Shown here: positions 40,063-63,521 of the stretch, in pieces
How the letters are laid out: every line of letters begins with the position of its first letter
Numbering within the stretch: the stretch's first letter is position 1
NCBI RefSeq assembly: GCF_001306175.1
Contig: NZ_LGKN01000003.1
Coordinates: 62,001-126,000, forward strand
Source of the DNA: Ardenticatena maritima
GTDB lineage: Bacteria > Chloroflexota > Anaerolineae > Ardenticatenales > Ardenticatenaceae
Direction: 5' to 3'
DNA: 64,000 nt
Notes under the pieces: model-generated
Told to the model about the DNA's origin: nothing
Database searches by the model: none
Seen by the model: only the letters and a program-made list of their open reading frames with translations
Position numbers and translations under genes: made by a program

Positions 40063-40135
40063 GGGCGCGTGGTGCAGCGGTTAGCACACCGGCCTGTCAA
40101 GCCGGAGGTCGCGGGTTCGAACCCCGTCGCGCCCG
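40063..40135 (+). tRNA. tRNA-Asp (anticodon GTC)
   Basis: A 73-base cloverleaf. The acceptor stem pairs GGGCGCG (40063-40069) with CGCGCCC (40128-40134), followed by discriminator G. The anticodon GTC is at 40096-40098 within a five-base stem CCGGC/GCCGG, and the T-loop is TTCGAAC. No CCA is encoded. It lies at the left edge of the AT-rich island. Confidence 0.95.
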
Positions 40136-40472: not shown

Positions 40473-43325
40473 ATGCATCCTGGCTCTATTGTCCAATTTC
40501 GTGAACGGTATTGGGTCCTTTTACCACATGAAGAGAGTCATGTATATGCTCTTCGCCCGCTTACCGGCGCTCTTGATGAGACGTTACTCATCCATAAGCA
40601 ACTTGCCGATACAATTGGCTATTCATTACCCGAAGAGCGCATAACGTCAGCTGAGTTCCCTTTGCCAGAAGGAAACTATCCACAAGACGCTATGAGCGCA
40701 CGCTTGCTATGGCAGGCTGCGCGTTTGACGTTGCGTGAGGGAGCTGCCCCTATTCGTTCGTTGGGCAAGATTTCTATTCGCCCGCGCACGTATCAATTTG
40801 TGCCCTTGTTGATGGCTTTGCGTCTTGAAACTGTGCGCCTGTTGATTGCCGATGATGTGGGGGTTGGAAAAACCATAGAAGCGTTGTTAATTGCGCGTGA
40901 ATTGTGGGAGCGTGGTGAAATTCGCCGCTTTGCTGTTCTTGCTCCTCCGTATTTGTGTGATCAATGGCAAAAGGAACTGCAAGAAAAATTTAATTTCGAT
41001 GCTGTTGTTGTGCGATCAGGGACTGTTCGACAATTGGAGCGCCATTTACCGCCAGGGCAGACGATTTATGATTACTATCCTGTCCAGGTGATTAGCATTG
41101 ATTGGGTCAAAACAGACCGCAATCGGTATCTTTTTTTGGAACATGCGCCTGATTTGGTCATTGTTGATGAAGCACATGGGGCGACACAATCCAATAGAAA
41201 GGGGCAGCAGCTGCGTTACGAATTTGTTTCGCGTGTTGCGCAAGAGAAAGAACGTCATCTCATTCTGCTTACAGCGACACCGCATAGCGGTATCGAATCG
41301 GCGTTTCGCTCACTGCTCGGTTTGCTCAAACCGGAGTTTGCCGAGTGGGATATGGGCAATCTCACGCAAGAGCAGTTGCAGAGTCTCGCGCGCCATTTTG
41401 TACAGCGCACTCGACGCGATATTGAGCGAGATTGGGAAGGCGAAATTTGTTTTCCCAAGCGTATCTCCGAAGACCTTACATACTCACTTTCTCCGGGATA
41501 CCAAGCTCTTTTCCAGGAGACATATAAGTTTTGCCATGAAATTGTCAGCACAGGGCGATCTTTGGAACAACGCCGCCGCCGTGTGCGGTATTGGGGGGCG
41601 TTGGCGTTGCTGCGCTGTGTCATGTCCAGCCCTGCGGCGGCTTTGGCGGCTTTGCACGCGCGGCATGAGCGGTTATCTGATGGGGCTGATCTTGTGCTCG
41701 AAGAAGATGTGGATTTCCACCGTGCGATTTTTGAATCCGACAATGACGAAACAGACGATGAACAGCCGTCGCTTCCTATTGCTGAAACCGTTGTTTCGTT
41801 ACAAGAATCGGAGCAACGTAAATTACACCGGTTAGTCAAACTGGCTAAACAAGTCCATTCAACTGACGAGGATACGAAACTGCAAGGACTGGTGATTGCT
41901 GTTGATGATCTACTTCAAAAAGGCTATGCCCCCATTGTCTGGTGTCGTTATGTCGCAACAGCGGAATACGTGGCGGAAGGGCTTCGCACGCGCTTGTCCG
42001 CTCATACCGGCCTTCAGGTAGTCTGCATAACCGGTCGCCAGGCGGATGAAGAGCGACGCGCCCGCATTGATGAGGTTGATGCACACGCCCCCCGTGTGCT
42101 TGTGGCCACGGATTGCCTTTCGGAAGGCGTCAACTTGCAGGAAAAATTTACCGCTGTCATTCACTACGATTTGCCTTGGAACCCAAACCGGCTGGAACAG
42201 CGCGAAGGACGTGTGGACCGCTATGGGCAGACCGCGCCAGAGGTGCGTGTCATCCGTTACTACGGTGTTGACAATCCGGTGGATGGTGTCGTGTTGGATG
42301 TGTTGCTCAATAAGGCCCGCGAGATTCACAAAGCGTTGGGGACGTATGTTCCCATTCCGGAGGACAGTGAAAGTATCACCGAAGCTGTACTCAACGCCTT
42401 ATTCTTGCGAGGTTATCCTTCCGAAGCACGACAACTCTCTTTCAATTGGCTGGAAGTTGACCCCAAAATTGCCCACTTGCATAAAAAGTGGGAATACGAC
42501 GCGAGGCGAGAGAAAATCTCGCGAACCCGTTTTGCCCAACGTGCGCTGAAACCGGAAGAAGTCCAGCGTGAGCTTGAAGCTGCTGATGCTGTTCTGGGTG
42601 ACCCCGACGCCGTGCGTGAATTTGTCTTGGAAGCGACCTCGCGCCTTGGATTTCCTATGAAGCCCGATCCCCGACGCGCCGATGTTTGGCACATTCCCTT
42701 GACAGGGTTGCCAAGCAACTTGCCCGAAGCAGTGCGTTATGCTCTCCCGCATATCCAAGCTGATACCTGGGAAGTCAGTTTTGTTTCGCCGACACCTGCT
42801 GGGGCGACATATGTGGGGCGCAATCACGCCTTTGTTCAAACATTGGCGCGATTTTTGTTTGAAGAAGCGCTCACGCGCGAAGAGGATGCCCGTGCGGCGC
42901 GAACAGGAGCATTGGTGACGGATGCCGTGGATACACCTACTACGCTCTATTTGTTGCGTGTGCGGTATCTCGTTCAGCAGCCCAATGGGCGTGACCTCTT
43001 TTCAGAGGAAGTCCGTATTTTGGGGCGCACGCCTGCCGGCTGGCTCAGTGATGAAAAAGCGCTTCAATACCTCAATGCGGAGCCTCGCGGCAATCTCTCC
43101 GCCGAAGAGAAACAGCAACGTGTGCATGCCGTGCTGAAAGAATGGCCTCGTCTCGAAGACGATGTAAAACAACGGGTTGAAGCACGCGCCCAGGCATTGA
43201 CCGAAGCGCACAAGCGCATTCGCAAAGCCATGCGGAGTGGTGTGCGTGGCTTGCAGGTGACGCCGCGTTTTCCGGTTGATTTGCTTGGTGTGCTCGTTTT
43301 GCTTCCGAAGGAGGCGCAACAATGA
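40473..43325 (+). CDS. DrmD-like SNF2/DEAH helicase
   Basis: A 950-aa SF2 helicase of the SNF2/RapA-like type. Motif I is DDVGVGKTIE (127-136), motif II DEAH (232-235), motif III LLTATPHSG (265-273), and motif VI QREGRVDRYGQ (about 576-586). The N-terminal 100 residues and the C-terminal 300 residues (RKAMRSGVRGLQVTPRFP at the end) are unassigned. Size and motif form match DrmD, the helicase of class 1 DISARM, which sits next to an adenine methylase in that system as here. It probably translocates on double-stranded DNA of invaders. AGAGG precedes the ATG. The stop overlaps the next start by four bases (ATGA). Confidence 0.85.
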   Translation: MHPGSIVQFRERYWVLLPHEESHVYALRPLTGALDETLLIHKQLADTIGYSLPEERITSAEFPLPEGNYPQDAMSARLLWQAARLTLREGAAPIRSLGKISIRPRTYQFVPLLMALRLETVRLLIADDVGVGKTIEALLIARELWERGEIRRFAVLAPPYLCDQWQKELQEKFNFDAVVVRSGTVRQLERHLPPGQTIYDYYPVQVISIDWVKTDRNRYLFLEHAPDLVIVDEAHGATQSNRKGQQLRYEFVSRVAQEKERHLILLTATPHSGIESAFRSLLGLLKPEFAEWDMGNLTQEQLQSLARHFVQRTRRDIERDWEGEICFPKRISEDLTYSLSPGYQALFQETYKFCHEIVSTGRSLEQRRRRVRYWGALALLRCVMSSPAAALAALHARHERLSDGADLVLEEDVDFHRAIFESDNDETDDEQPSLPIAETVVSLQESEQRKLHRLVKLAKQVHSTDEDTKLQGLVIAVDDLLQKGYAPIVWCRYVATAEYVAEGLRTRLSAHTGLQVVCITGRQADEERRARIDEVDAHAPRVLVATDCLSEGVNLQEKFTAVIHYDLPWNPNRLEQREGRVDRYGQTAPEVRVIRYYGVDNPVDGVVLDVLLNKAREIHKALGTYVPIPEDSESITEAVLNALFLRGYPSEARQLSFNWLEVDPKIAHLHKKWEYDARREKISRTRFAQRALKPEEVQRELEAADAVLGDPDAVREFVLEATSRLGFPMKPDPRRADVWHIPLTGLPSNLPEAVRYALPHIQADTWEVSFVSPTPAGATYVGRNHAFVQTLARFLFEEALTREEDARAARTGALVTDAVDTPTTLYLLRVRYLVQQPNGRDLFSEEVRILGRTPAGWLSDEKALQYLNAEPRGNLSAEEKQQRVHAVLKEWPRLEDDVKQRVEARAQALTEAHKRIRKAMRSGVRGLQVTPRFPVDLLGVLVLLPKEAQQ

Positions 43326-46300
43326 CGACGGCTACACTCGCCTTTCGGGTTGAAGGTGGCTTGTTGAGCCCTGATGTGTTGGAAGATGTGCGGCGGGGGG
43401 CATTGCCCGGACAACGCCCGCAGGATTTTGGGCTCCCTGCCACGCGATCTTTGACGGATGAAGTGGCGTCCATCTACCACGATGCGCGCGCCCAATGGCA
43501 GATTTTCCAACACCGCCTGGCGAATGTCCCCGAAGATCGTCTTGGAACGACAGAGACCCGCCAATTTTGGGTGATCCCCTTGCTTGGGATGTTGGGGTAT
43601 GAGTTGCATTATAGCGCCAAGGCCGAAGTGGTGGACGGGTTGACGTTTGCCATCTCGCACCGCGCGGGGCTTACCGAGACCGCTCCACCGGTGCATATTG
43701 TGGGGGCGCGGCAACCTTTGGGGCGCGTGCCGGCAAGCGGACGCCCACGCCTTTCACCTCATGCTCTGATGCAGGAATACCTGAACCGCACCGACCACGC
43801 GTTGTGGGGGGTGGTGACCAATGGCCTGACATTGCGTTTGCTGCGCAATTCCACCTTTATTCGGCGTCAAGCCTATGTGGAGTTTGATTTGCAAGCTATC
43901 ATGGAGGAAAACCGCTTTGCGGATTTCTTCATGCTCTACCGGTTGTTGCACCGCACACGTTTGCCCGCCGATGGTGCGCCGCCCGATGATTGTTGGTTGG
44001 AAACGTATTTCCAACATTCTCTGGAACAGGGGGGACGTGTTCGCGAACATTTGCGCGAAGGGGTGGAGGCGTGCATTTCCATTCTGGCAAACGGCTTGTT
44101 GCAACATGCGCAGAATGAGGATTTACGGAAATGGGTGGATGAAAATGGCGCACAGGCGTTCTATCAGCAGTTGTTGCGCCTGGTGTATCGTTTGTTGTTC
44201 CTGCTTGTGTCGGAAGAACGCGGCTTGATGGGGGGGAACACGCTCTACTACGCCTCGTATGGTGTTTCGCGTTTGCGCCGGTTGACAGAACAACGCGCCG
44301 CCTGGACCGATGATAAGGATTTGTGGCATGGGTTGCGTGTGTTGTGGGAGGTGCTGCGCAATGAGAAAATGGCGAAGTTGCTGGATGTACCGCCGTTGAA
44401 TGGCGAGTTGTTTGCCCCTCTGGCGCTGGATAACGCTCGGTTGGATAACCGCACACTCTTGGCGGGGCTTTGGCATCTCTTCTGGTATCAGGAAGGGAAC
44501 GCGCCCCCGCGTCGGGTCAATTACGCCGCTCTGGATACCGAGGAACTGGGGTCGGTGTATGAGAGTTTACTCGATTATCAGCCGCACATTGTGAAAGGAG
44601 GGGGACGCCCGACTTTTAAACTGGGGTGGGGGTCGGAGCGCAAATCAACCGGTTCGTACTACACACCGCCCCAGCTGGTCAACGAACTTATTCACAGCGC
44701 CTTGGAGCCGGTGATTCAAGAACGATTGCAGAACGCCCCTGATCAGGAAGCGGCTTTGCTCTCTATCAAGGTCTGCGATCCGGCTTGCGGCTCCGGTCAC
44801 TTTTTGCTGGCCGCCGCCCGACGTTTGGGGAAGGAATTGGCGCGGATTCGTACCGGCGCCGAAGAACCGGCGCCCGAAGATGTGCGCAATGCCGTGCGTG
44901 ATGTGGTGGCGCATTGTATCTATGGTGTTGACAAAAACCCGTTGGCTGTCGAACTGGCGCGTGTAGCGCTATGGCTGGAAAGCCACGTCACCGGCAAACC
45001 GCTCTCTTTTCTGGACCACCATATCAAGCATGGTGATTCCTTGATTGGGGTCTTTGATATGGAAGTGCTCGAACAGGGCGTGCCGGATGATGCTTTTAAG
45101 CCGGTGAGCGGAGATGAGAGGCGAATTGCTTCCGCCGCCAAGCGGCGCAACAGGCAGGAGCGCAGTGGGCAAAGAGCACTTTGGGGATGGAATGAAGAGT
45201 TTGATCTGACCCCTCTGGCGCAAAAGTTCGCCCAGATTGATGCAATTCCCGATGATTCGCCTACCGATGTGCGTAAGAAACGTAACTTGTACGGCGACTT
45301 GCTTCGTGACGAGACGCGGAAACGTGCAAAAGAAGCGTGTGATGCCTGGGTGGCCGCTTTCTTTCAGCCCTATCGCCCCGGGGAGGAGGTGATAACGACG
45401 GATGTGGTGCGCCGTCTCTTGCATGGCGAGTGCGATGTTTCCGACATGATAAAAGACATTGCCGATGAGGTCGGCTTCTTCCACTGGCCGCTGGAATTCC
45501 CGGATGTATTTGAAAAGGGAGGATTTGATGTAGTATTAGGTAATCCACCATTTGGTTTTATTTTAAATGCTAAGCAAAATAAGTTTGTTAAATCTCAGAG
45601 CATTTATAAAGTGGCTATTCCATCTAAAAATACCTCGGCTTATTTTCTCGTATTATCATATAAATTAGTGAAAAATCAAGGGCGAATAGGTTTAGTGATG
45701 CCAAAATCGTTAACTTATTCTTATGCTTGGAATCCAACTCGGGAATATATTTCCCAAAGTGTGATACGTGTAATTGATGTTGGAAAGGCGTGGAAAAACG
45801 TAAAACTTGAACAAGTTCTTGTGACTTTAAAAAAAGCGTCAACTGAAGTTATTGAGGTTGGGCGGAAAAATACTAACTTTGACTTGCAGATTCAAGTTAT
45901 AAAGCGAAAACGGTTAAAAGAGTGGGGAATAATTCCAACAGGAATTTGTCAAGAAGATATTGATATTGCAGAAATTCTTTTTTCGCAAACTTCTTTTATG
46001 TTAGGGGAAATTGTACAAACTCAACGAGGTAAGGCTTTACAGAACTATTTTCGGGAAACTGGTGATTTGCCTGTTCTTGCTGGAAAGGATATTAAACGAT
46101 TTTCTGATCCCAAAACTCGTTATTATATAAATTCGGGAGAAGTTCCTTCGAAATATTTATTATTAACTCTCCCTGGGGATATAGTTTTTCAGAATATTGT
46201 AGCATATCTGAATAAACCAAAGGGACATATTCGCCTGATAGGAACGATTGTAGATAAGCCATTTGCTTGTGTAGATACAGTGAATATTTTAAGACCTATA

Positions 46301-46633
46301 GGTCCTTCTTTTTCTCCTTATATTTTAGCGTCCTATTTAATGTCAGATCTTGTTAACTGGTTTGTACATACATTTATTTTTAATCGAGCTATTCGTACTA
46401 TGCATTTTGATGGTTATGTTTTGCAAAAAATTCCTGTGCCTTTATATAAAACTTTACATCCCTTGGAAATGCTTGGCAAAAGGTTACGTAAAAATCCAAA
46501 AGAACAATACCTTTGGGAAAATTTAAATGAGGTAGTTTTTCAGGCTTTTAAAATTCCTTTGGAGTTGCAATATTATATTAATTCTTTCTATAAAAATAAA
46601 CCAACCAAGAAGGGGGGCAATCATGACACGTGA
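43322..46633 (+). CDS. Adenine-specific DNA methylase, N-terminal half native and C-terminal half exchanged
   Basis: A 1103-aa Eco57I/DrmMI-like N6-adenine methylase. The SAM-binding motif is VCDPACGSGHFL (484-495), and the catalytic motif is GNPPFG (740-745). A long N-terminal region (1-440) precedes the core. Up to about residue 735 the codons are GC-rich; from about base 45525 the sequence becomes strongly AT-rich to the end. The AT-rich part holds the catalytic NPPF and a specificity region like that of type IIG enzymes (GEIVQTQRGKAL, LPVLAGKDIKRF, IPVPLYKT). The usual C-terminal third of this family is missing here and is found instead at 47150-48523. The enzyme still has all core motifs, so activity is likely. 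It overlaps the previous gene by four bases and the next by eleven. Confidence 0.85.
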   Translation: MTTATLAFRVEGGLLSPDVLEDVRRGALPGQRPQDFGLPATRSLTDEVASIYHDARAQWQIFQHRLANVPEDRLGTTETRQFWVIPLLGMLGYELHYSAKAEVVDGLTFAISHRAGLTETAPPVHIVGARQPLGRVPASGRPRLSPHALMQEYLNRTDHALWGVVTNGLTLRLLRNSTFIRRQAYVEFDLQAIMEENRFADFFMLYRLLHRTRLPADGAPPDDCWLETYFQHSLEQGGRVREHLREGVEACISILANGLLQHAQNEDLRKWVDENGAQAFYQQLLRLVYRLLFLLVSEERGLMGGNTLYYASYGVSRLRRLTEQRAAWTDDKDLWHGLRVLWEVLRNEKMAKLLDVPPLNGELFAPLALDNARLDNRTLLAGLWHLFWYQEGNAPPRRVNYAALDTEELGSVYESLLDYQPHIVKGGGRPTFKLGWGSERKSTGSYYTPPQLVNELIHSALEPVIQERLQNAPDQEAALLSIKVCDPACGSGHFLLAAARRLGKELARIRTGAEEPAPEDVRNAVRDVVAHCIYGVDKNPLAVELARVALWLESHVTGKPLSFLDHHIKHGDSLIGVFDMEVLEQGVPDDAFKPVSGDERRIASAAKRRNRQERSGQRALWGWNEEFDLTPLAQKFAQIDAIPDDSPTDVRKKRNLYGDLLRDETRKRAKEACDAWVAAFFQPYRPGEEVITTDVVRRLLHGECDVSDMIKDIADEVGFFHWPLEFPDVFEKGGFDVVLGNPPFGFILNAKQNKFVKSQSIYKVAIPSKNTSAYFLVLSYKLVKNQGRIGLVMPKSLTYSYAWNPTREYISQSVIRVIDVGKAWKNVKLEQVLVTLKKASTEVIEVGRKNTNFDLQIQVIKRKRLKEWGIIPTGICQEDIDIAEILFSQTSFMLGEIVQTQRGKALQNYFRETGDLPVLAGKDIKRFSDPKTRYYINSGEVPSKYLLLTLPGDIVFQNIVAYLNKPKGHIRLIGTIVDKPFACVDTVNILRPIGPSFSPYILASYLMSDLVNWFVHTFIFNRAIRTMHFDGYVLQKIPVPLYKTLHPLEMLGKRLRKNPKEQYLWENLNEVVFQAFKIPLELQYYINSFYKNKPTKKGGNHDT

Positions 46634-47149
46634 TCCTAATTATTGGAAGAAAAAATACAAAGGGATGTGGAAAATTGCGTCTCAGCGAGAAGAAAAAGTT
46701 AAAAAATATTTAGAAGAACAGGGGTTTAAGATTGAGTTTTTTGGCTTAGGCTCTGGAACAGAGGAGTTTTTAGAGGGATCTGCGGATAAATATGGTTATA
46801 AAAAAGGCGAACCGGATTTGTGGGTTGTAGATACTAATATTTTCATTGAAGTTACCGGTACAAATAGTCCTTATGTGAAAAAGAGTGCGCCTTTATGGAT
46901 ACGACCTGACAAAATAGAATCTGCTAAAAATGATCCATCACGTGATGTATGGCTTGTACATGTACTTGACAGAGAAAATTTATTACGTTGTATCCAAATT
47001 AGTAATTTACCTTTAAATAAATTTAATAAAAAAGTAAAAATAATTAGAGGTGCAAGGGAAGTGTACATTGAAATTAGTGCTACAGACCCTGTTGTTCATC
47101 CAATAAAAAAGTTAGTAGAATATATCCGTGCGTATAAAAAATCTCATAT

Positions 47150-47175
<26 letters not shown>
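45525..47175. other. Very AT-rich replacement cassette inside the methylase locus
   Basis: From about 45525 to 47175 the sequence is much poorer in GC than both sides. It begins inside the FDVVLGNPPF motif of the methylase and ends just before RRLFTLSADDI, the point where the conventional methylase C-terminus resumes. It encodes the exchanged methylase C-terminus plus a 176-aa nuclease candidate. Boundaries are judged by eye from codon use. Confidence 0.7.
46623..47153 (+). CDS. Small PD-(D/E)XK-like nuclease candidate
   Basis: A 176-aa basic protein that I cannot place in a named family. The central GEPDLWVVDTNIFIEVTGT has PD at 64-65 and E-V-T at 76-78, which fits the PD...ExK nuclease core with Thr in the Lys position. 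An N-terminal helix with EEKVKKYLEEQGF and a later RPDKIESAKN (94-103), which supplies a lysine, also fit. Restriction-type enzymes and Hjc-like resolvases share this fold. The gene is AT-rich like the end of the preceding methylase gene, overlaps it by 11 bases, and overlaps the next gene by four (ATGA). It may act as the nuclease partner of the new specificity region. Activity is inference; the Lys replacement weakens it. Confidence 0.6.
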
Positions 47176-48523
<1,348 letters not shown>

Positions 48524-48574
48524 ACAAGTCCGCAGGCAAATTGTCAACGGCAAGCATTCCACAGGAGGCGCAAC

Positions 48575-52897: not shown

Positions 52898-52959
52898 GGT
52901 TGTGGCTTTCTCAGCAATGTTTTGCTGATAAAAGAAAAAGACCACTATCGAGGTTGAGT

Positions 52960-55900
52960 ATGTCTATCTTTGATTTACATACAGATGTTTTGAGTGATTA
53001 CAGCAATTTTGTACGCTCATTCATTCATATTGCTGATGAGCGCATTCGGCAGTTTGTTTTTGAACAACTCAATGATGGTCATTTATGGCCTGATTTTCTG
53101 CTTCAAGTGAGTCCCGCCTATAAACGTTCAGCGACGGTAGATGAATTAGCGCGGCAGGGCGTCTTGCATCCTGAAACAGCACGAATTTTCCGTACCGCCG
53201 ATGGGAAGCCATACCATCTGTACCAGCATCAGGTGGAAGCGCTGGAAAAAGCTGTGCAAGGACGGAGCTACATTGTCACCAGCGGGACAGGTTCTGGTAA
53301 AAGTCTCACTTATTTTATTCCCATTATTGATACAGTTGTGCGTGAGCAAATACCCAATGGCCGTACTGTTGCCTTGATTGTGTATCCCATGAATGCACTT
53401 GCCAACTCGCAATTACAGGCGCTTGAACAGTTGCGCCAGGATTATGAGGCGCGTACCGGAAAGAGATTTCCCGTCACATTTGCACGCTATACAGGTGATA
53501 CGCGCGACGAGCTTCGGCAAGCACTTCGGCAAAAACCGCCGCATATTCTGCTTACCAATTATGTTATGGCTGAACTCATGCTTGTTCGTCCTGAGGACCG
53601 GCGTTTGCTCGATAAAACTGCGGGCGGCTTGCGATTCCTGGTATTTGATGAATTGCATACGTATACGGGGCGACAAGGAGCAGATGTCGCCATGCTCATT
53701 CGGCGGCTCAAGCAGTATGCGGCGGCACCCAACCTCATTCACATTGGTACATCTGCAACAATGGTAGCCAATCGCAACGCCTCTGCGCGGGAGCGGCGCG
53801 AGACTGTTGCGCATTTTGCACAGCGGATGTTTGGGTATCCATTTGCTTTTGAAGACGTAATTGAGGAAACACTTATACCGGCCACCCGCCATTCTACTCT
53901 TGCACGTGACGTTCTTATCGAAAGTATACATGAGGCATGTGCACTTTCTCCTGACGACCTCGTTACATTCACTGCAGAGGAATATCTCACAAACCCTTTA
54001 TCCTCGTGGATAGAACGTTTTTTCGGGCTAGAAGAACATGATGGCTCTTATCGACGCCGTATTCCACAAAGTATTACAGATGCAGCTATGCAACTTCAGA
54101 AGGAGACTGGGCTTGATATTGGATTATGCCAACGCGCTTTACTAAATTGGCTCACACTTGGGAGCCAGATACCTTCATCTGAGCATGGGCGTGCTTTTGC
54201 ATTTAAAATTCATCAATTTATATCGCAGGGACGTGCTGTATATGCGACTATTGAAGATCCTGGACAGCGTTCAATTTCGTTGTCCGGACAAATTCAGACG
54301 GCAGAAGGAAGTTTGTATTACCCCCTCAATTTTTGTCGGCATTGTGGTCAGGAATATTATCGCGTACATAAAATGAGCTCACGTTTTCTCCCTTGGACAG
54401 GATCTTTTTTTGAAGAACTGGATGACGAATGCATATCTGGATATCTTATGGTCGCAACAACAGATCTGGATTGGTCGGAAGATCTGCTTCCAGATGAATG
54501 GTTTGATGATCAAGGACGTTTACGTCGTGCATATCGTGATCGTGTTCCAAAATTATACTATGTTAATGCTTCAGGTGAGATCGTGCATCATGCTGTGGGG
54601 GTAAAGACCTGGTTCCAACCAGAGCCATTTGCGCTCTGTTTGCGATGTGGAGAGTACTATACTCGTCGTGAAAGTGAATACACTAAACTCACAACCCTTT
54701 CAAGTGAAGCTCGCTCAAGTGCAACAACTATTCTCGCAACATCAGTGTTGCGGCACGCCACCACTATTCCTTCGATTGCCGATAAACTATTGACGTTTAC
54801 TGACAATCGGCAAGATGCTGCTTTGCAAGCGGGACATTTTAATGATTTCGTACATCGGGCTGTTTTACGTTCTGCGTTAGTAGCCGCTTTGGATGAATCT
54901 CCTCGATTGCATATGAGCGAAGTGGCCTCTGCGGTTGTGCGGCATTGTGGATTAACACTTCGTGATATCGCAGCTAATGCGCAATTGGCACCAGATACGC
55001 CTGCTGCGGACGAAACTTGGCAAATATTTACAGAATGGGTGGAGTATCTTCTCCTTGAAGATTTAAAACGAGGTTGGCGTATTAACCAACCCAACCTGGA
55101 AGAGGTAGGACTTCTTGAAATATCTTATCGTGGGCTTGACATTCTCGCCCAGAGTGATGAAGCCTGGCGTTTTTCTCCACAGTGGTATGCTCTTTCCCCC
55201 AAAGAGCGTTTTGAGCATCTGCGTAATATTTTGGACTATTTTCGGCGTAAACTAGCTATTCATGCCCCTTCTTTACAGTGGAATACACAACGTATCAAGC
55301 GACGCAAATGGGAATCGACCTTGAATGATTTTTGGGGACCGGATCCGGAGGGCAGTTTAGTAAGTGCTTCTTTTTTTGCGACTGAGCCTGCTGGCAATGT
55401 ACGCGATGTTTTCAGTCTTGGAGAACGAAGTGCGATTGCACGCTATTTGAAACGCTCATTAGGGATTGATGCACAAACATATCTTGAGCAGCGGGATGCG
55501 TTCCTGCAATTGCTTGTTCAGCATGGTATTTTGTGGCCGGAATCTTTAAAGAAAGGGATTGGGTACCAAATTGATGCAAACTGTCTTTGGTGGCAAAGAG
55601 GGAATGGCATCCCGCGGCGTGATGCTTTTTATGCGCGGATAGCCCAAGAAGGATACGAAGTCGCAGAGAAACCGGCGAATGCCTTCTTCCAGCAATTTTA
55701 CAAAGAGAACCCCGAGAGATTAGCTGGTTTAGAAGCGCGTGAACATACGGCACAAGTCGTTGCGCCTGGTGAGCGTGAAAAACGGGAACGGCGTTTTCGG
55801 TGGGATCAAAAAGATACAGAGAAAGAGAATCTGGGGCGCCGATTACCTTATTTGGTTTGCTCTCCCACAATGGAACTTGGAATTGATATTGCTGATCTGG

Positions 55901-58062
55901 ATGTTATTCATATGCGTAACGTCCCGCCGACACCGGCAAACTATGCTCAGAGGAGTGGACGCGCTGGGCGGCAAGGGCAACCAGGCTTAATTTTAGTTTA
56001 TTGTGGTGCTTTCAACTCGCATGATCAATACTTTTTTAGAAACCGAATAGAAATGGTGGCCGGGACAGTACGTCCACCGCAAATTGACTTGAACAATGCA
56101 TCTTTGCTGCAAGCGCATATTCATGCTGTTTGGTTGGCTGAGATTGGTTTGCCGATGCGGCAATCGATTGAGACTGTTATTGATACAGGTGCCCCCAATC
56201 TACCTTTGCGCCCTGAGGTGGCTGAGCAAATACGCCTCAATGACAAACGTTTGCAGGCGTTAGCCGCACGCATAGAAGAGATGCTTCGATATGATCGTGA
56301 GCAGGGGGAAATTTTTGAACATGGGCATTACGACCAAATCTTGCAAATCCTGCGTGATGCTCCCCAACGGTTTAACAGTGCTTTTGACCGTTGGCGGGAT
56401 CTTTATCAGGCGGCGGACCGACAGATGCAGGAGGCTATGGAGACATTATTAAGTGCTCGCTCCAAGGAAATGCAAAATGAAGCTCAACGTCGCCTCGATG
56501 AGGCGCGGCGTCAAAGAAATTTGCTTTTGCAAATTGAAACAGCACGTGAAGAAAGTGATTTTTATCCGTATCGCTACTTGGCAAGTGAAGGGTTCTTGCC
56601 AGGCTATAATTTCCCAGCGTTACCTATTCGTGCGTGGATCCCACGTGGTGCAAGTGGTGAATATATTCCGCGGCCTCGTTTTCTTGCGGTCCGTGAATTT
56701 GCGCCAGGAGCTTTTATTTATCATGAAGGGAAACAATGGGAAGTTGTGGCATTCAATACTCCTCCGGGAGGCTTGCGTTCAAGAAGAGTGAAATTCAAGC
56801 TGTGCAAACGATGTGGTGCATTTAATTCGTCTGGTTTTGATGTGTGCTTAGTGTGCCAGCAACGTCTTGATGCTACTTATGGACCACTTACCTATCTATT
56901 GGAAATGACTGACGTACGCACTCGCCGACGTAGTAACATTACGTCAAATGAAGAAGAGCGTCGTCGGCGAGGATACGATATTGGCATTTTTTATCAGTTT
57001 GCCACAGAAAACAATCGTCCTCGCATTGAAGAGTCTGATGTTGTTTTTGGCGCAACAGACCTTTTGCAGTTGACATATGCACATGCGGCCACTCTTATTC
57101 GAGTGAACCACGGTTTACGTACTGAGCAAGTTCCGGGGTTTGATATCAATTTGACAACGGGTGAATGGGTGCGGAATGAGGAAGGTCGTCAACCCGTTTA
57201 CGGCTCCCCTAGTCATGCTGTAAGTGAAGTCGAGCGTGTACATTTGTTCGTCCGCAATACGCGCAATTTATTGCTGGTCCGCCCTGCCCAGGAAGATTTG
57301 TTTTTAGATCCGCAGTATGGGCTGGCGTTTGCAATTACTTTGATGAATGCATTAAAACGTGGCATAGAAATGGTATATCAGCTTGATGAAAGTGAGTTGG
57401 CCGCGGCTATCGTTGGCATGGGTGAATATATGGCAATTTTATTTTATGAAACGTCAGAAGGTGGAAGTGGAGTATTAAGACGAATTATTAAATCGCCAAA
57501 GGATATTTCAGAAATTGCAAAAAATGCCCTTGAACGATGCCATTTTGATTCATCAACAGGAGAGAATCTGTCAGAAGAATGTATCAAGGCTTGTTATGAA
57601 TGTTTACTCACTTATCATAATCAGCATCAGGCGCTCCTTATTGATCGGCATTTGATCGCGGATTTTCTTGCTCAGATGACTCAAAGTACAGCCGAAATGC
57701 GTATCGCTGGCAGGCGTCGCAGAGAGCATATCGCTTGGTTACGATCGCATATTGATCAAGAGTCTGTGTTAGAGAAGCAGTTTTTAGATATTTTGGAGCA
57801 AGGAGGATATAATTTGCCAAATGATGTACAATATGCAATTCAGTTTCCTCGTTGCAACGTAGATTTCTTCTATGAACCTAATATTTGTGTGTTTTGTGAT
57901 GGGAGCGTGCATGATATTTCTTCTCAGAGAGAAAGAGATGCGTCTATTCGTTCTGCGTTAGAACAAAATGGGTATCGGGTTATTGTAATACGGTATGATC
58001 AACCTCTAGAAAGCCAGATAAAGATGTATCCAGAAGTCTTTGGTATGGGGTATTCTACATAA
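52960..58062 (+). CDS. DUF1998-type SF2 helicase with Vsr/DUF559-like C-terminus
   Basis: A 1700-aa helicase. Motif I is SGTGSGKS (108-115), DELH is at 230-233, GTSATM at 263-268, and motif VI QRSGRAGRQGQ lies near 996. Zinc-type pairs CRHCG (about 458), CLRCG (about 558) and CKRCG...CLVC (about 1280-1300) follow the DUF1998/Lhr-like pattern. The DUF1998-like cysteine cluster CIKACYECLLTYHNQ is near 1540. The last 100 residues (VDFFYEPNICVFCDGSVHD, then ERDASIRSALEQNGYRVIVIR) look like Vsr/DUF559 endonucleases. DruE of Druantia and DrmA/DrmB of DISARM share the helicase and DUF1998 parts; here they are in one chain with a nuclease-like end. The start at 52960 has GAGG eight bases upstream and avoids overlap; an ATG at 52876 has none. 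Confidence 0.85.
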   Translation: MSIFDLHTDVLSDYSNFVRSFIHIADERIRQFVFEQLNDGHLWPDFLLQVSPAYKRSATVDELARQGVLHPETARIFRTADGKPYHLYQHQVEALEKAVQGRSYIVTSGTGSGKSLTYFIPIIDTVVREQIPNGRTVALIVYPMNALANSQLQALEQLRQDYEARTGKRFPVTFARYTGDTRDELRQALRQKPPHILLTNYVMAELMLVRPEDRRLLDKTAGGLRFLVFDELHTYTGRQGADVAMLIRRLKQYAAAPNLIHIGTSATMVANRNASARERRETVAHFAQRMFGYPFAFEDVIEETLIPATRHSTLARDVLIESIHEACALSPDDLVTFTAEEYLTNPLSSWIERFFGLEEHDGSYRRRIPQSITDAAMQLQKETGLDIGLCQRALLNWLTLGSQIPSSEHGRAFAFKIHQFISQGRAVYATIEDPGQRSISLSGQIQTAEGSLYYPLNFCRHCGQEYYRVHKMSSRFLPWTGSFFEELDDECISGYLMVATTDLDWSEDLLPDEWFDDQGRLRRAYRDRVPKLYYVNASGEIVHHAVGVKTWFQPEPFALCLRCGEYYTRRESEYTKLTTLSSEARSSATTILATSVLRHATTIPSIADKLLTFTDNRQDAALQAGHFNDFVHRAVLRSALVAALDESPRLHMSEVASAVVRHCGLTLRDIAANAQLAPDTPAADETWQIFTEWVEYLLLEDLKRGWRINQPNLEEVGLLEISYRGLDILAQSDEAWRFSPQWYALSPKERFEHLRNILDYFRRKLAIHAPSLQWNTQRIKRRKWESTLNDFWGPDPEGSLVSASFFATEPAGNVRDVFSLGERSAIARYLKRSLGIDAQTYLEQRDAFLQLLVQHGILWPESLKKGIGYQIDANCLWWQRGNGIPRRDAFYARIAQEGYEVAEKPANAFFQQFYKENPERLAGLEAREHTAQVVAPGEREKRERRFRWDQKDTEKENLGRRLPYLVCSPTMELGIDIADLDVIHMRNVPPTPANYAQRSGRAGRQGQPGLILVYCGAFNSHDQYFFRNRIEMVAGTVRPPQIDLNNASLLQAHIHAVWLAEIGLPMRQSIETVIDTGAPNLPLRPEVAEQIRLNDKRLQALAARIEEMLRYDREQGEIFEHGHYDQILQILRDAPQRFNSAFDRWRDLYQAADRQMQEAMETLLSARSKEMQNEAQRRLDEARRQRNLLLQIETAREESDFYPYRYLASEGFLPGYNFPALPIRAWIPRGASGEYIPRPRFLAVREFAPGAFIYHEGKQWEVVAFNTPPGGLRSRRVKFKLCKRCGAFNSSGFDVCLVCQQRLDATYGPLTYLLEMTDVRTRRRSNITSNEEERRRRGYDIGIFYQFATENNRPRIEESDVVFGATDLLQLTYAHAATLIRVNHGLRTEQVPGFDINLTTGEWVRNEEGRQPVYGSPSHAVSEVERVHLFVRNTRNLLLVRPAQEDLFLDPQYGLAFAITLMNALKRGIEMVYQLDESELAAAIVGMGEYMAILFYETSEGGSGVLRRIIKSPKDISEIAKNALERCHFDSSTGENLSEECIKACYECLLTYHNQHQALLIDRHLIADFLAQMTQSTAEMRIAGRRRREHIAWLRSHIDQESVLEKQFLDILEQGGYNLPNDVQYAIQFPRCNVDFFYEPNICVFCDGSVHDISSQRERDASIRSALEQNGYRVIVIRYDQPLESQIKMYPEVFGMGYST

Positions 58063-58087
58063 CTTCGAATTTGTTCCGCGGTCTGTG

Positions 58088-58126
58088 TAAATGGGAAGAA
58101 GTGTTATCTTCTTCCCATTTTTATTA
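58088..58126 (+). terminator. Intrinsic terminator of the forward defence operon
   Basis: A 13-bp perfect stem (58089-58101 with 58108-58120) with a 6-nt loop ends in TTTTTATT. Confidence 0.85.
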
Positions 58127-58382
58127 ACCTTCCTCCGCTCTACATGGCTTTGCTGATGTGCTGCAGCAAGTGGCATGACATATTAAGGCAACCACATTAC
58201 GCTTGATTGGTTGATTAGGGAAAATATAAGTCAATGGATGCAAAAATTCTTTAACCATGTGCCCTAATATGCTAAACTGCTCATAGAGATTTATCTTGGG
58301 AATTGGTTAGTTACCCATTGTGCGCAGAGCCTTTTCTTTGCCGTGATCTAAAGAACACCAGCAAAAGAAAGGGCTTTTATTC
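58127..58382 (+). other. Convergent intergenic region with a second hairpin
   Basis: Most of this stretch shows nothing. Near 58329-58378 an imperfect stem (AGCCTTTTCTTTGC with GCAAAAGAAAGGGCT) is followed by TTTTATT on the plus strand and runs into the last codons of the minus-strand ATPase gene. It would act as a back-up terminator for the forward operon. Whether it also serves the minus gene is doubtful, as no T-run follows on that strand. Confidence 0.45.
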
Positions 58383-61300
58383 AGAATTAGAGGTAGTTGG
58401 TTCAATTTCTGCAATACTTCGCCAGCCATCGTCGAACATGAAGTGATTAGCGTAGGCTGCAGGATTTGGTATGCAGTAAATACGGTAATTTTCACTTTCA
58501 GCTTGTTCAACTACGTACAGCCAGAATTTATCGCCTAGTTTTTGCGCTTTTTCAAATTGAGTTTTTGATAAAGTAACATATTGCCCATTCCATTTACCTG
58601 ATAAAGACTTGACTTCAATATAGCGCACTATATTCCCTTCTTTATCCTTAGAAAGAATATCGTACCCGGGATGAGTATGAGGCATTGATTCTGGAATACG
58701 CCCCGCATTCTTCTCAAAGTCTAAAACCCGCTGAATGCCGGCTTGATCTATCCGCTTTCTATGTTCTTGGCTTATGCTTGGAGAATCTTCTGTTGTGAGT
58801 GCTGCAGATTCATCAGAGTGAATGACATAGCTCCTGAGTACCATACGTGTAGATTGGCGATGGCGGGATGAATTTTTCTTTTTTGAATATTTTTCAGTAA
58901 GCGGGAAGTCGTATGCTTTTCTAGTTTTTGGGGGTGCCTGATGTTTTTCTTCATTCAGATTTTCAGCAGGGTTGGATTTGATAGATTCGTCCAAAAGAGT
59001 ATCAGCAGGAGTGTTATGTGTTTGAGTACTCTCGGGAGGATATATCGTCTCAATAAACCTATCCTCACCTAATGTATTAATAGCCTCAACATTCTTCGTC
59101 ACTTGGGTAGGTATCTCTCCTAAGGGAGCATAGTATAATTCATCAAGTGTTCTTTGGGCTTCCTTAAAAGTTTTTGCAGCGAGTACGTCTTTAAATGCTG
59201 ACGCCAAAAGTCCTGGGTCTCCATCTGCAAGTAAGGCTAGAGCCAATTCGCGGGCTAAGGGTAGGTAAGGATATTCCCTATTTTGTGGTGTAAAAAGAAG
59301 CAAGTTGTCTTTTTCAATATAAAGAGCAGATATTGTCTCTGGATTACTTATGATTTCACGATTAAAAGCTTGCAATCGATATCGAATTTTTAATAATGCA
59401 ACAGATTGACAGCGTAAAGTATCTAAACGAAGCAGTTGTTTCTCACGGATATCTTTATCTGCAGATGCTACTATCCGCTGGAAAAGGAGGCGGCGAGTCC
59501 GAATGATCTCGGTCAATTCGAGATCATCAACTCTTTGTTCACATTCAACAATTTGTACTTGAACAGCCTCTCTGAGTAATCGAACCCCCGCAGCCGTTAA
59601 AGCTTTGCGTGTATTCAGGGGGGGGATAACAATGTTCCCTTTCAAAAAATCATTAAATTTATTTGCAAGACCGTGCTGGTCTTCTATGAAAATCCAACTT
59701 GGCTGATATAAAATTCGTTGGTTGTTGGGAACACATTTGATTGTTTGCAAGGTTTTAAGTGCTTGGCTTACAATGTTTTCGTTTTCATTTTCTAATGCTT
59801 CGTTGAGCATGATCCAGCAATGCCAAAGCACAGTATGTGCTTCCTCGTCTAGAGGTATATTTCTGGAGCCAAATTCTTCCGAAATTTCTTGTAATACCTT
59901 TAAAGCATCTTCCCACGTGGGATGCTCTTTTACCCCGATTTTCTCTAGAAAATCATTGATTTGACGAAGGTTTGACTCGAGCTGCTTTCTATAACGTCCA
60001 AAATTATGTTGTTGCCAAAAAACTTCATCAGGCCTGTAATATGCTCCATCAGACCAGAGACATTTTGTTCCTTGTAGTTTTTTAATGTTAGGGTCATTGG
60101 TCTTGGAATTTAAGAAATTGTAAATTTCTTTATGAGGTTTTTTTTGTCGCTCAATGCAATGCAGTAAGTGATTGACAACCAATTCTGTGGGTGGAACATG
60201 TTGAACGCCCAAAAACTTAAGGAAATTACTAGCCTCATTTTGAACTGCCCTAGATAAGCCTAGAAATAGCGCTTGGCTCTCGAAAAGGTATTTCTGATAT
60301 ACAGCATATAATTCATCAGGCTTGTACCATTGGTCAATTTTCCCTTCAGCCGGAAGCCAAGCGATTCGTTTAAGTTTCTCTAGTTTTTGCTTCGTTACTT
60401 CATTGGCTGTTTGATAATATTGGTCTAAAAATCCTACAATGAGTTCGATTTGTTTCACGGATTCAGGACTATAGTGTCTCGAAGAAATTTCGTCGATTTT
60501 CTTCAAAAGATCGTCAATTCGCGGTTTATCTGCCACACCCAACCACCGGTACAGGTCCTCAATTGGTTCACTAGGCGGATTTTCAAGAAGAGCGTAGGGT
60601 GTAGAGTCACCAAGACACTTGCGCACGTCGGCATTAGGGAAGTAACATTCAGTAGCTGGATAAGAACGTCCGTCCGAACACTCTATAAGAGGAATCTGTG
60701 CTAGGATATCCCGGGCACTTGGATTTTCTTTTAACTCTCCAAGATGATGGGCTAAAAGACGCACTGCAGCGCGGCGCTTTTCGTGGGGGATATCATCTTT
60801 TAATGCTTCTGGAAGAAATTTAGTGGCATATGTAAGAAAATCAAGTTCTTGCACACCCAAATCACGTAAAAAATCGTAGCGCATACCAATAGCATGAAGA
60901 TCAACCACATCGGCAAGACCAATCGGATCCTTAAAGTTACCTGGTAATGCAAGATCTGCTAGTCGTCGCAAATTCTTCCCACTGGGAAACATAGGGATTT
61001 GCTTGAAAGATTTTTTGAGATTTTTATCTTGCAAAACAATATCTCGTCGTTTTTCGAACCATTGTAAAATTTGATCGATTGGTAGATGCCGTTGCGCCCA
61101 AAGATGTTCTAGAAATTGAGAATCCATTTCTTGTAAAAGTTTCACTGCTACTCTGGCAGTAAATGGAGGACAGAGGTGGCGAAGAGGCTTAAACGCTTCC
61201 TCTGAAGATAAAAAAACAATATCTGGGCATAGACGTTTAAAAAGGTTTATCGTCTCCTCATCACTTTGATAAATGTCTTTGCAAGGCCAAAGAGATCCAT

Positions 61301-62837
61301 CATCACCTGGGGCGAGTGGCAGAGATTTGATTCTTTCAGAAAATTCAGGTTGATGCTTTAACAGAAGGGCTATTTCCGACCATAAAGCCTCGAGGTATTC
61401 TTTTTGGGCTAGCGCAGGGGGGAGTTCGTTAGGCTTGATACGCTGTATAAAACCTAACTCTTGAAATTTTTCATATATTGCTCTGATATCCAACTTATGT
61501 ATTTTGATTTCACGAAGTAACGATTGGTATGGGCGTAGAATTTCGTTTACAATTTTGAAACCTAAGGCTTCGAGCACTGGTATTGCTTTAGATTCCTCTT
61601 TTTGTGAGAGAAAATATGCTTCTTTTGGAAGAACCCATTGCTTTTGTGTAGTGTAGATAACTCGTTCTTTGGCTAGGGATTCACGTGCGTATTCCCAGAA
61701 TGCCTTTAGGGTAGGCTCGCCAGAGCATTTATTTTGCAAAAAAACTTCCCGAACCTTTTTCAAAAGTGCCCAAAATTTTTCGGGGCCAAGGATCTGAGGT
61801 AGTTGCTTAATGGCATCACCAAATGTCTGAGCAGCGGCCCGGAGAGCTGCTCTGTTCCACTCCGATTGGTAATCGTTTTCCAAAATAATACGTTTGCGGT
61901 CATTGGTAGTGTAAAAGTCAGCGTTAATATGGAATGGGAGCCCTGCATTATAGGTAGTAGGTAAATAGGCATATACCAAACCTTTTTCTAAGGATGCATC
62001 TGAGACAGCTAATGTTACTTTTGAAGAACGTTTGTCTTCAATTTGTTTATATTTTTGTTTTAAATTTACAGATTCTTCGGTGAAGTCTCCTTGAAATAGA
62101 TACCAAATTCGATCATTCTCTGGGGCACCCTCACTTACGATCATTTGACCGTCTAGATGAATCTTTTCAAACGTGCGTACAAGTTGGCCATTGTAAAGAA
62201 TCGAAAGCTTCTTAAGATGCTTAAGAAACAAAATAGCCTCAGGAAGGAAGGATTCTAACTCTTGGCGAAATCGCTGTGGTCCATCTGGGGGGACAGATTC
62301 AACACGTAAGGAACTCCGTAAATGAGATCCTTTTTCATATGCCCATGGCAAGATGAAGCGAGTTCTTGGTAAATGTCCTTTTTGGCATGTGGTGCATCCA
62401 CCACATGCCATAATACGTTTCTCTTCGGGATTATCCTCGCGGATTTTCCAGTGTCGCCCTGCAGAGATAAGCTCTGGATAATCGGTAATCTGGTAAACAG
62501 CGATAAAGCCAATACCAAAAGCGCCAATGGTATCTTGTTGCCAGCGTTTGTCTCCTGAAGCCACAGAACGAAAACGATGAAAGTCACATTTATAGCCTCG
62601 TTCCTTTTTCCAAAGACATATTTCTTCTTCCGCATGACCACAATCGCTGAACACACTATCATTATCTACGATAAGTGCTTTATCCGTAATATCAAAAGAC
62701 AGAGATGTCGCACGCGCGTCATCTGCATTCTGAATCAATTCACTGGCTAGAGTGCGATACCCTTGCAAATCGCGCAGTTTTGCACCAATGAAACCCAAAT
62801 AGTCAACAGAGCGAGATAAGGGCCGATCTGCAGTCAT
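58377..62837 (-). CDS. Sacsin-like GHKL ATPase with C-terminal DUF3883
   Basis: A 1486-aa protein. The N-terminus is a GHKL/Hsp90-type ATPase as in sacsin: ELIQNADDAR (33-42), IVDNDSVF (about 56-63) and IGAFGIGF (104-111) form the N, G1 and G2 boxes. Cysteines at 145, 148 and 151 (CGGCTTC) look metal-binding and are an unusual insertion. A long helical middle without known motifs follows. Near 1389-1475 GYDILSKD, YIEVKSLSG and FWLYVVE match DUF3883, which has a PD-(D/E)XK-like core (D...ExK). Sacsin-type ATPases with DUF3883 recur in defence islands. It runs toward the helicase operon with a separate promoter. AAGGAGAAGG precedes the ATG at 62837; an earlier ATG at 62864 overlaps that site. 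Confidence 0.85.
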   Translation of the reverse strand: MTADRPLSRSVDYLGFIGAKLRDLQGYRTLASELIQNADDARATSLSFDITDKALIVDNDSVFSDCGHAEEEICLWKKERGYKCDFHRFRSVASGDKRWQQDTIGAFGIGFIAVYQITDYPELISAGRHWKIREDNPEEKRIMACGGCTTCQKGHLPRTRFILPWAYEKGSHLRSSLRVESVPPDGPQRFRQELESFLPEAILFLKHLKKLSILYNGQLVRTFEKIHLDGQMIVSEGAPENDRIWYLFQGDFTEESVNLKQKYKQIEDKRSSKVTLAVSDASLEKGLVYAYLPTTYNAGLPFHINADFYTTNDRKRIILENDYQSEWNRAALRAAAQTFGDAIKQLPQILGPEKFWALLKKVREVFLQNKCSGEPTLKAFWEYARESLAKERVIYTTQKQWVLPKEAYFLSQKEESKAIPVLEALGFKIVNEILRPYQSLLREIKIHKLDIRAIYEKFQELGFIQRIKPNELPPALAQKEYLEALWSEIALLLKHQPEFSERIKSLPLAPGDDGSLWPCKDIYQSDEETINLFKRLCPDIVFLSSEEAFKPLRHLCPPFTARVAVKLLQEMDSQFLEHLWAQRHLPIDQILQWFEKRRDIVLQDKNLKKSFKQIPMFPSGKNLRRLADLALPGNFKDPIGLADVVDLHAIGMRYDFLRDLGVQELDFLTYATKFLPEALKDDIPHEKRRAAVRLLAHHLGELKENPSARDILAQIPLIECSDGRSYPATECYFPNADVRKCLGDSTPYALLENPPSEPIEDLYRWLGVADKPRIDDLLKKIDEISSRHYSPESVKQIELIVGFLDQYYQTANEVTKQKLEKLKRIAWLPAEGKIDQWYKPDELYAVYQKYLFESQALFLGLSRAVQNEASNFLKFLGVQHVPPTELVVNHLLHCIERQKKPHKEIYNFLNSKTNDPNIKKLQGTKCLWSDGAYYRPDEVFWQQHNFGRYRKQLESNLRQINDFLEKIGVKEHPTWEDALKVLQEISEEFGSRNIPLDEEAHTVLWHCWIMLNEALENENENIVSQALKTLQTIKCVPNNQRILYQPSWIFIEDQHGLANKFNDFLKGNIVIPPLNTRKALTAAGVRLLREAVQVQIVECEQRVDDLELTEIIRTRRLLFQRIVASADKDIREKQLLRLDTLRCQSVALLKIRYRLQAFNREIISNPETISALYIEKDNLLLFTPQNREYPYLPLARELALALLADGDPGLLASAFKDVLAAKTFKEAQRTLDELYYAPLGEIPTQVTKNVEAINTLGEDRFIETIYPPESTQTHNTPADTLLDESIKSNPAENLNEEKHQAPPKTRKAYDFPLTEKYSKKKNSSRHRQSTRMVLRSYVIHSDESAALTTEDSPSISQEHRKRIDQAGIQRVLDFEKNAGRIPESMPHTHPGYDILSKDKEGNIVRYIEVKSLSGKWNGQYVTLSKTQFEKAQKLGDKFWLYVVEQAESENYRIYCIPNPAAYANHFMFDDGWRSIAEIEPTTSNSE

Positions 62838-62890: not shown

Positions 62891-63373
62891 TCACTGCAAG
62901 TAAAATCCCACATACTCGCGCACTTCCCCCAGTTCTCTGTCAAAGTCCAGGCGGCCTTCTCGGCGGGGATTGCCCTGCGCGTCCACCAAGGGGTCGGCGG
63001 CCAGAGCGACCAGGTGGAGCACCTCGCCGGGGGGCGGGGGCGGCGCAGGCCGGTCCACCAGGCGCAGAAAGCCGTAGTCCAGGCAGAGCGGGGCCTTGCG
63101 GTCGGGCAGCGCGGCGAACTCCCAGGGCAGGGCGTCGGCCGCTTCGTCCGCGTCCAGGAGCAAAAGCCCGTCGGGGTCCGCGTCCAGGCGTTCCAGCAGG
63201 GCTTGGCCGCCCAGGGCGCGGAAAAGCGCCAGCCCAGGCGTGTTTGTATCGTCATCGTGCTGAAAGGTTTGCAGGTCTGGCAGCGCGCTCAGTGGCGTCT
63301 CGGCGACAGTCTGGTCGTCCAGCGTGGTGCGTACAACGCCTTGCCAGGTGCGCAGGCGGAGCAGAACGGCCAT
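62891..63373 (-). pseudogene. CHAT-domain protein gene truncated at the island edge
   Basis: A 160-aa product that keeps only the first part of a CHAT (caspase-like) protein. DADEAADALPWEFAAL followed by PLCLDYGFLRLVDRP and LHLVALAADPLVDAQGNPRREGRLDFDRELGEVREY matches the start of CHAT domains, in which the catalytic His and Cys come another 100 or more residues later. Here the reading frame stops ten codons after the GC-rich sequence ends. The gene is thus cut by the island. GAGGG lies before the ATG at 63373. Intact CHAT proteins act as proteases or scaffolds in stress or cell-death responses. Full-length versions of a shorter, non-catalytic protein cannot be excluded. Confidence 0.6.
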
Positions 63374-63521
63374 GAGCATCCCTCACGTGTCGGTCGAATA
63401 TAGCGCGGTGATAAGGCAACTATACGCCAGCGTTGAATGGGCGTCAATCTGTTGGGGCGGGGGCGTGTTGGGTGGTGATGTGTTGCCTCGATATACTCCT
63501 CTTCACTTCAATGCCCCCTCC

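What the first reader, a model, noticed from the sequence alone, without database searches (positions are those of the whole stretch)
40473..62837. Composite defence system that is neither DISARM nor Druantia
Seen: SNF2 helicase, adenine methylase, SF1 helicase with helical repeats, a single-chain DUF1998 SF2 helicase with a nuclease-like end, and a convergent sacsin-like ATPase with DUF3883, all packed in an AT-rich island. Known: class 1 DISARM pairs drmD and drmMI with drmA, drmB and drmC; Druantia uses DruE, a large DUF1998 helicase, with other partners. Here the drmD-drmMI-like pair stands next to a DruE-like protein, and drmC (phospholipase D-like) is absent. The SF1-repeat protein and sacsin-DUF3883 protein have no counterpart in either. 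The inference is a distinct system with host methylation, several motors and up to three nuclease-like domains.
Basis: partly seen in the sequence, partly recalled or inferred. Interest (0 to 1): 0.85.

Follow-up and report, generated by a model that had tools for sequence, protein, structure and literature searches.

The report
ARMADA defence system with split methylase
This is a complete copy of a recently described bacterial anti-virus system (ARMADA type I). Its DNA-methylating enzyme has been cut in two by a piece of a foreign restriction-modification system, an extra toxin-helicase gene sits in its middle, and an unrelated single-gene defence system (Tiamat) lies beside it.

Summary
It is not an unnamed system, though. 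Genes P0001, P0002+P0004 and P0006 are ArmA, ArmB and ArmC of ARMADA, described in a September 2025 preprint (PMC12458937). The ArmC tree places it in Type I; ARMADA-I-like loci were found in 127 distinct places across many phyla. The convergent sacsin/DUF3883 gene is TmtA of Tiamat, a separate single-gene system found beside no other ARMADA copy.

Two features go beyond the published main text. (1) ArmB is split at catalytic motif IV by a 1.6-kb, 33% G+C cassette in a 56-60% G+C gene. The cassette supplies a new methylase second half and a small nuclease-like gene; relatives of both lie together in a stand-alone type-IIG-like locus. The displaced specificity domain survives as an intact ORF, keeping 59 of 60 near-invariant residues. 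(2) Helicase P0005, with a predicted RelE-like N-domain, sits between ArmB and ArmC. That interval is a cargo slot: over 1 kb in 27 of 29 A-B-C loci, against 4 of 48 C-A gaps in C-A-B loci.

Verdict: new variant of a known kind. No function was tested.

The parts
40063..40135 (+). tRNA-Asp(GTC); left border of the island. Synteny with the same-genus genome G001 stops at its last base
40473..43325 (+). ArmA: SNF2/RapA-type DEAH helicase (P0001)
   Evidence: full-length PADLOC DpdE-model hit 637 bits, DrmD 308 bits; 40-48% identical to ArmA in other ARMADA loci
43322..45553 (+). ArmB N-terminal and catalytic part up to motif IV NPPF (residues 1-744 of P0002)
   Evidence: about 33-50% identical to ArmB of other loci; Eco57I/N6_Mtase
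45540..47165 (+). AT-rich (about 33% G+C) cassette replacing the segment after motif IV: foreign second half of the methylase with its own target-recognition domain, plus P0003
   Evidence: GC steps 56 to 33% and 33 to 60%; Alw26I-type MTase match 757-1084; homologous only to Paracoccus ArmB and to methylases outside ARMADA
46623..47153 (+). P0003: small protein, possible PD-(D/E)XK-type nuclease (D65...E76-V-T)
   Evidence: no family hit; homologue 39% identical two genes downstream of a IIG-like methylase in G248; conserved residues; fold not confirmed
47150..48523 (+). P0004: orphaned C-terminal (specificity) domain of the original ArmB as a separate ORF, start overlapping the P0003 stop
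   Evidence: 36-56% identical to the ArmB C-terminus in Thermus, Chlorohelix and cyanobacteria; 59 of 60 near-invariant residues kept
48575..52897 (+). P0005: RelE/HigB-like N-domain + SF1 UvrD-type helicase + helical C-terminal extension; ArmD-like, in the B-C cargo slot
   Evidence: UvrD; RelE/HigB/YoeB fold hits of residues 1-130; hhalign to ArmD 98.9%
52876..58062 (+). ArmC: YprA/MrfA-type SF2 helicase with MZB/DUF1998 and C-terminal Vsr-like nuclease; the likely start is the internal M29 (about 52960)
   Evidence: tree
58377..62837 (-). TmtA of Tiamat (sacsin-type ATPase + NOV_C/DUF3883); separate single-gene system, start at M10
   Evidence: PADLOC TmtA 1830 bits over 12-1494; SACS, NOV_C

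Best explanation
The locus is an ARMADA Type I anti-phage system of A-B-C gene order next to tRNA-Asp in a Chloroflexota genome, with a stand-alone Tiamat gene downstream. Likely mechanism, inferred from families and from the tested E. coli Type II system: ArmB methylates adenines at a specific sequence and marks host DNA as self. ArmA and ArmC are ATP-driven DNA motors that act on DNA without that mark, and the Vsr-type domain at the end of ArmC cuts it. P0005 is an accessory RelE-helicase in the ArmB-ArmC cargo slot that probably adds an RNase or helicase arm, as ArmD does in Type II. Shown by sequence: the part of ArmB after motif IV was replaced by a segment related to type-IIG-like restriction-modification loci; it brought in a new recognition domain and P0003, and left the old recognition domain as the separate, intact ORF P0004. 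Inferred: P0002 is the working methylase with a new specificity, and P0004 is either a recent remnant or still used.
For: Profile hits for each gene. ARMADA definition and experimental data. A, B and C conserved together in plasmids and chromosomes of many phyla. ArmC tree puts the window with Type I loci, Thermus TF21 as sister, away from E. coli ArmC-II and DruE. ArmB: 81 of 104 complete ORFs carry N and C parts in one ORF; in the window P0002 holds the N part and P0004 the C part. GC steps coincide with NPPF. Cassette relatives lie in methylases outside ARMADA, once with a P0003 homologue. Paracoccus ArmB has the same kind of swap, with only the last 100 residues of the old C part left. P0004 well conserved. 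B-C slot: >1 kb in 27 of 29 A-B-C loci vs 4 of 48 C-A gaps, with GmrSD, ApeA-HEPN, OLD-like, Fic, Uma2, PIN, TumE and ParE-UvrD cargo. P0005 N-domain RelE-like by fold.
Against: No function was tested. P0005 has no close homologue in other ARMADA loci, so its place in the mechanism is a guess. Methylation by a hybrid ArmB is not shown, and the hybrid could be dead. The extreme GC of the cassette suggests a recent insertion, so P0004 may simply not have had time to decay. Only Type II ARMADA is reported as tested in the paper read; Type I activity is inferred.
Confidence: 0.82

Rival explanations
1. The cassette insertion inactivated ArmB: the locus is a decaying ARMADA copy and P0002/P0003/P0004 are debris.
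For: Other ArmB genes are broken by frameshifts or IS elements; the cassette is compositionally fresh.
Against: Every ORF of the operon is intact, with short overlaps or short gaps between neighbours; P0004 keeps 59/60 and the ArmB N part 178/182 near-invariant residues; the same hybrid layout occurs in Paracoccus; motif IV and motif I are intact.
Confidence: 0.2
2. P0005 is not part of ARMADA but a separate defence gene parked in the B-C slot, like the other cargo.
For: Its closest sequence relatives are stand-alone plasmid RelE-UvrD proteins, one with TPR repeats; the slot holds unrelated defence genes elsewhere; true ArmD matches it only weakly by BLAST.
Against: RelE-UvrD ArmD homologues occupy the same slot in five cyanobacterial A-B-C loci, and ArmD is essential in Type II.
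Confidence: 0.5
3. A new composite system in which all the genes including the sacsin-DUF3883 gene act together.
For: Adjacency and shared low GC.
Against: TmtA is a known single-gene system family, convergent, and beside no other ARMADA locus fetched here; no P0005-like protein found with ARMADA elsewhere.
Confidence: 0.05
4. Class 1 DISARM that lost drmC, or a Druantia variant.
For: DrmD/DrmMI and DruE profile hits.
Against: DrmD score 337 under the 610 cut-off; the DUF1998 helicase is a single chain, no DrmA/DrmB pair, no DruH; the tree separates ArmC from DruE.
Confidence: 0.03

Closest known systems
ARMADA Type I (Bell et al. 2025, PMC12458937)
   Same: ArmA, ArmB and ArmC homologues; Vsr nuclease end on ArmC; A-B-C order, which the paper reports for many archaea and cyanobacteria
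   Different: ArmB split by a restriction-modification-derived cassette with the old specificity domain kept as a separate ORF; RelE-SF1 protein between ArmB and ArmC
ARMADA Type II (E. coli ATCC 8739, NCTC 12900)
   Same: has a RelE-UvrD helicase as a fourth gene
   Different: order A-B-C-D, ArmC of another clade, ArmD 704 aa and only remotely like the 1440-aa P0005
DISARM class 1
   Same: SNF2 helicase and PglX-like methylase homologues
   Different: no DrmA/DrmB split, no PLD nuclease DrmC
Druantia (DruE)
   Same: giant YprA-family helicase
   Different: no SNF2/PglX-like pair in the E. coli type III locus seen here; DruH absent from the window
Tiamat (TmtA)
   Same: P0007 is a full-length TmtA
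   Different: independent of the ARMADA operon
Type IIG-like R-M loci (e.g. G248, L198:4282-8275)
   Same: methylase second half and P0003 homologue close together
   Different: stand-alone, own N-terminal domains, no ARMADA genes

Membership tests
ARMADA Type I | BrxHII/RapA-like SNF2 helicase (ArmA) | tested here: met
ARMADA Type I | PglX-like adenine methylase (ArmB) | tested here: met
   N part met; C part present as separate ORF P0004
ARMADA Type I | single-chain YprA helicase with MZB/DUF1998 and Vsr-type nuclease (ArmC) | tested here: met
ARMADA Type I | ArmC falls in the Type I clade | tested here: met
   15-sequence tree, node 100/99; long-branch outgroups, so not a full-family test
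ARMADA Type I | anti-phage activity | not testable with these tools
   shown only for Type II in the paper
ARMADA Type II | strict order A-B-C-D with ArmD last | tested here: not met
   P0005 lies between B and C
ARMADA Type II | ArmD: RelE-like domain fused to UvrD helicase | tested here: inconclusive
   same layout by fold and profile, but only remote similarity
DISARM class 1 | DrmD above curated cut-off | tested here: not met
   337 vs 610 bits
DISARM class 1 | separate DrmA and DrmB plus DrmC | tested here: not met
   helicase and DUF1998 in one chain; no PLD gene
Druantia type III | DruH partner | tested here: not met
   no DruH among the seven proteins
Tiamat | TmtA, full length | tested here: met
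   P0007 1830 bits, 12-1494

The most novel reading that the evidence does not exclude
ArmB specificity evolves by capture of restriction-modification halves at motif IV, and here the displaced recognition domain (P0004) is still used in trans, giving a two-part ArmB with two specificities plus a captured nuclease (P0003) tied to the new one.
Probability: 0.2. Interest if true: 0.72.

Novelty: new variant of a known kind. Interest (0 to 1): 0.5.

Why it matters
ARMADA was described only in 2025, and the type tested was Type II. This locus, with the survey behind it, gives two testable ideas about Type I. First, its methylase changes target by swapping the half after motif IV with restriction-modification enzymes, and can keep the old recognition domain. 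Second, the ArmB-ArmC interval of A-B-C loci is a slot that collects other defence and toxin genes, so it is a place to look for new ones.

Tried and rejected
Close relatives of P0005: none in 400 genomes of the phylum, genome contigs, viral contigs or phages; three distant stand-alone plasmid proteins. The genome and viral contig scans used peptides chosen from one sequence, so they could miss distant relatives. P0003 fold: the single-sequence AlphaFold model was useless (pLDDT 33.5), so the nuclease label rests on conserved residues only. Island as an integrated element: no second copy of the tRNA end in the window or genome and no integrase gene identified, so mobility is not supported. Frameshift as the cause of the ArmB split: rejected here because foreign sequence with a different GC lies between the halves; it fits Thermus TF21 and some others. 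Haladaptatus as a third ArmB with the same C part: rejected, its N part is not ArmB-like. PADLOC's DpdE label for P0001: its NCBIfam DpdE score is 190 against a cut-off of 500.

Full report
What is there. The seven ORFs in 40473-62864 are intact. Profile searches give a DrmD/DpdE-like SNF2 helicase (P0001), a DrmMI-like adenine methylase (P0002), nothing for P0003, a weak IIG C-terminal hit for P0004, a UvrD-type helicase (P0005), a DruE-like helicase with MZB/DUF1998 (P0006) and TmtA of Tiamat at 1830 bits (P0007).

What it is. A plasmid search with P0006 and P0002 showed the same SNF2-methylase-helicase trio in Thermus, Deinococcus, cyanobacteria, alphaproteobacteria, actinobacteria and Chloroflexota. 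A preprint of September 2025 names it ARMADA: ArmA, ArmB, ArmC, with ArmD (RelE plus UvrD) in Type II (PMC12458937). Using the E. coli ATCC 8739 Type II and Druantia III loci as references, the ArmC tree places the window with all the Type I loci, sister to Thermus thermophilus TF21, at 100/99 support; E. coli ArmC and DruE fall outside, though on long branches. The window's phylum is inferred to be Chloroflexota: two genomes of the same phylum have contigs of exactly the lengths of the Chlorohelix plasmid and a Thermomicrobium contig.

Survey. An ArmB-N alignment brought 80 loci from genome contigs and strong hits in many of 400 genomes of the phylum. With flanks fetched and ORFs compared, 127 distinct ArmB-like loci were seen. 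Of 104 complete ArmB ORFs, 81 carry the N part and the P0004-like C part in one ORF, 10 (the window included) have the C part in a separate ORF, and 13 have no recognisable C part. Split cases inspected besides the window and Paracoccus look like frameshifts, decay or an IS insertion; not every one was resolved.

The split ArmB. Residues 1-744 of P0002 are ordinary ArmB, mostly 38-50% identical to others; the canonical C part is P0004, 36-56% identical to the C-terminus in Thermus, Chlorohelix and cyanobacterial loci. Between them lies a block of about 33% G+C with sharp borders near 45540 and 47165, in a gene otherwise at 56-60%. The left border falls on motif IV (NPPF, residues 741-744). The block encodes a methylase second half resembling Alw26I-type enzymes and P0003. 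It matches the C-terminus of Paracoccus ArmB at 36%. In Chloroflexota it otherwise matches methylases outside ARMADA; in G248 such a methylase is followed, one gene later, by a 39% P0003 homologue. In Paracoccus only the last 100 residues of the old C part remain. P0004 keeps 59 of 60 near-invariant residues, and relative to the N part it ranks 77th of 82 loci in conservation, i.e. near the top. This fits either a recent event or continued use.

The extra helicase. Residues 1-130 of P0005 model with moderate confidence (pLDDT 72.6, from a single sequence; only one of five models was good); nearly all the best PDB matches are RelE/HigB/YoeB-type toxins (E 0.008 and up, probability mostly above 0.9). 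The helicase core matches the ArmD profile at 98.9%, which any UvrD-type helicase might partly do. RelE-UvrD ArmD homologues sit between ArmB and ArmC in five cyanobacterial Type I-like loci (L072, L075, L078, L080 partial, L097), an arrangement not mentioned in the main text of the preprint; its supplementary tables were not read. More generally, in 29 A-B-C loci the B-C interval exceeds 1 kb in 27 (median 2.3 kb), against 4 of 48 C-A intervals in C-A-B loci. These loci are related to one another, so the counts are not independent events. The slot contents include GmrSD, ApeA-HEPN, OLD-like ATPase, Fic, Uma2, DUF2887, PIN and TumE genes, and also a radical SAM protein and an ADP-ribosylglycohydrolase.

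Tiamat. P0007 has no counterpart in the other ARMADA loci fetched, lies on the opposite strand, and belongs to a known single-gene family; it is a neighbour. That Tiamat is a single-gene system rests on my own knowledge of the PADLOC family.

The island. Synteny with the same-genus genome G001 ends at the last base of tRNA-Asp (40135); a search of the window's genome with the G001 sequence beyond it found nothing. No repeat of the tRNA end exists elsewhere in the genome, so an integrated element is not demonstrated.

Mechanism. Shown elsewhere: in E. coli Type II all four genes are needed and protection is non-abortive (PMC12458937). Inferred here: self-marking by ArmB, DNA attack by the ArmA/ArmC motors and the ArmC nuclease, an accessory RNase/helicase arm in P0005.

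Noticed in passing
L032, L062, L070, L074, L100, L167 and other A-B-C loci: The ArmB-ArmC interval of A-B-C ARMADA loci is a variable cargo slot with diverse defence or toxin genes (GmrSD, ApeA-HEPN, OLD-like, Fic, Uma2, PIN, TumE, RelE-UvrD).
   Followed up: partly
L072, L075, L078, L080, L097: Type I-like ARMADA loci of cyanobacteria carry an ArmD homologue upstream of ArmC, not mentioned in the main text of the ARMADA preprint.
   Followed up: partly
L045: Thermus thermophilus SNM1-7 plasmid carries an A-B-C-D ARMADA with an ArmD 32% identical to E. coli ArmD and an NYN-domain gene between A and B.
   Followed up: no
L033: Deinococcus radiodurans R1 plasmid pMP1 carries an ARMADA I locus with ArmB broken into pieces, next to McrBC.
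   Followed up: no
L031:7642-13005: Thermus thermophilus TF21 ArmB looks frameshifted just after motif IV; the C part follows as its own ORF. Several T. thermophilus plasmids give the same hit.
   Followed up: partly
L041: Nocardioides sp. JS614 plasmid has DISARM genes, ARMADA I and McrBC side by side.
   Followed up: no
L198:4282-8275: IIG-like methylase, an unknown 214-aa gene and a P0003-like gene in a row: candidate uncharacterised R-M locus.
   Followed up: partly
window 62891-63379 (-): A short ORF just upstream of TmtA that reads like the start of a CHAT-type protein; possibly a fragment (not searched).
   Followed up: no
window 40135: The region after tRNA-Asp differs completely between two genomes of one genus, so this tRNA is a variable site.
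   Followed up: partly
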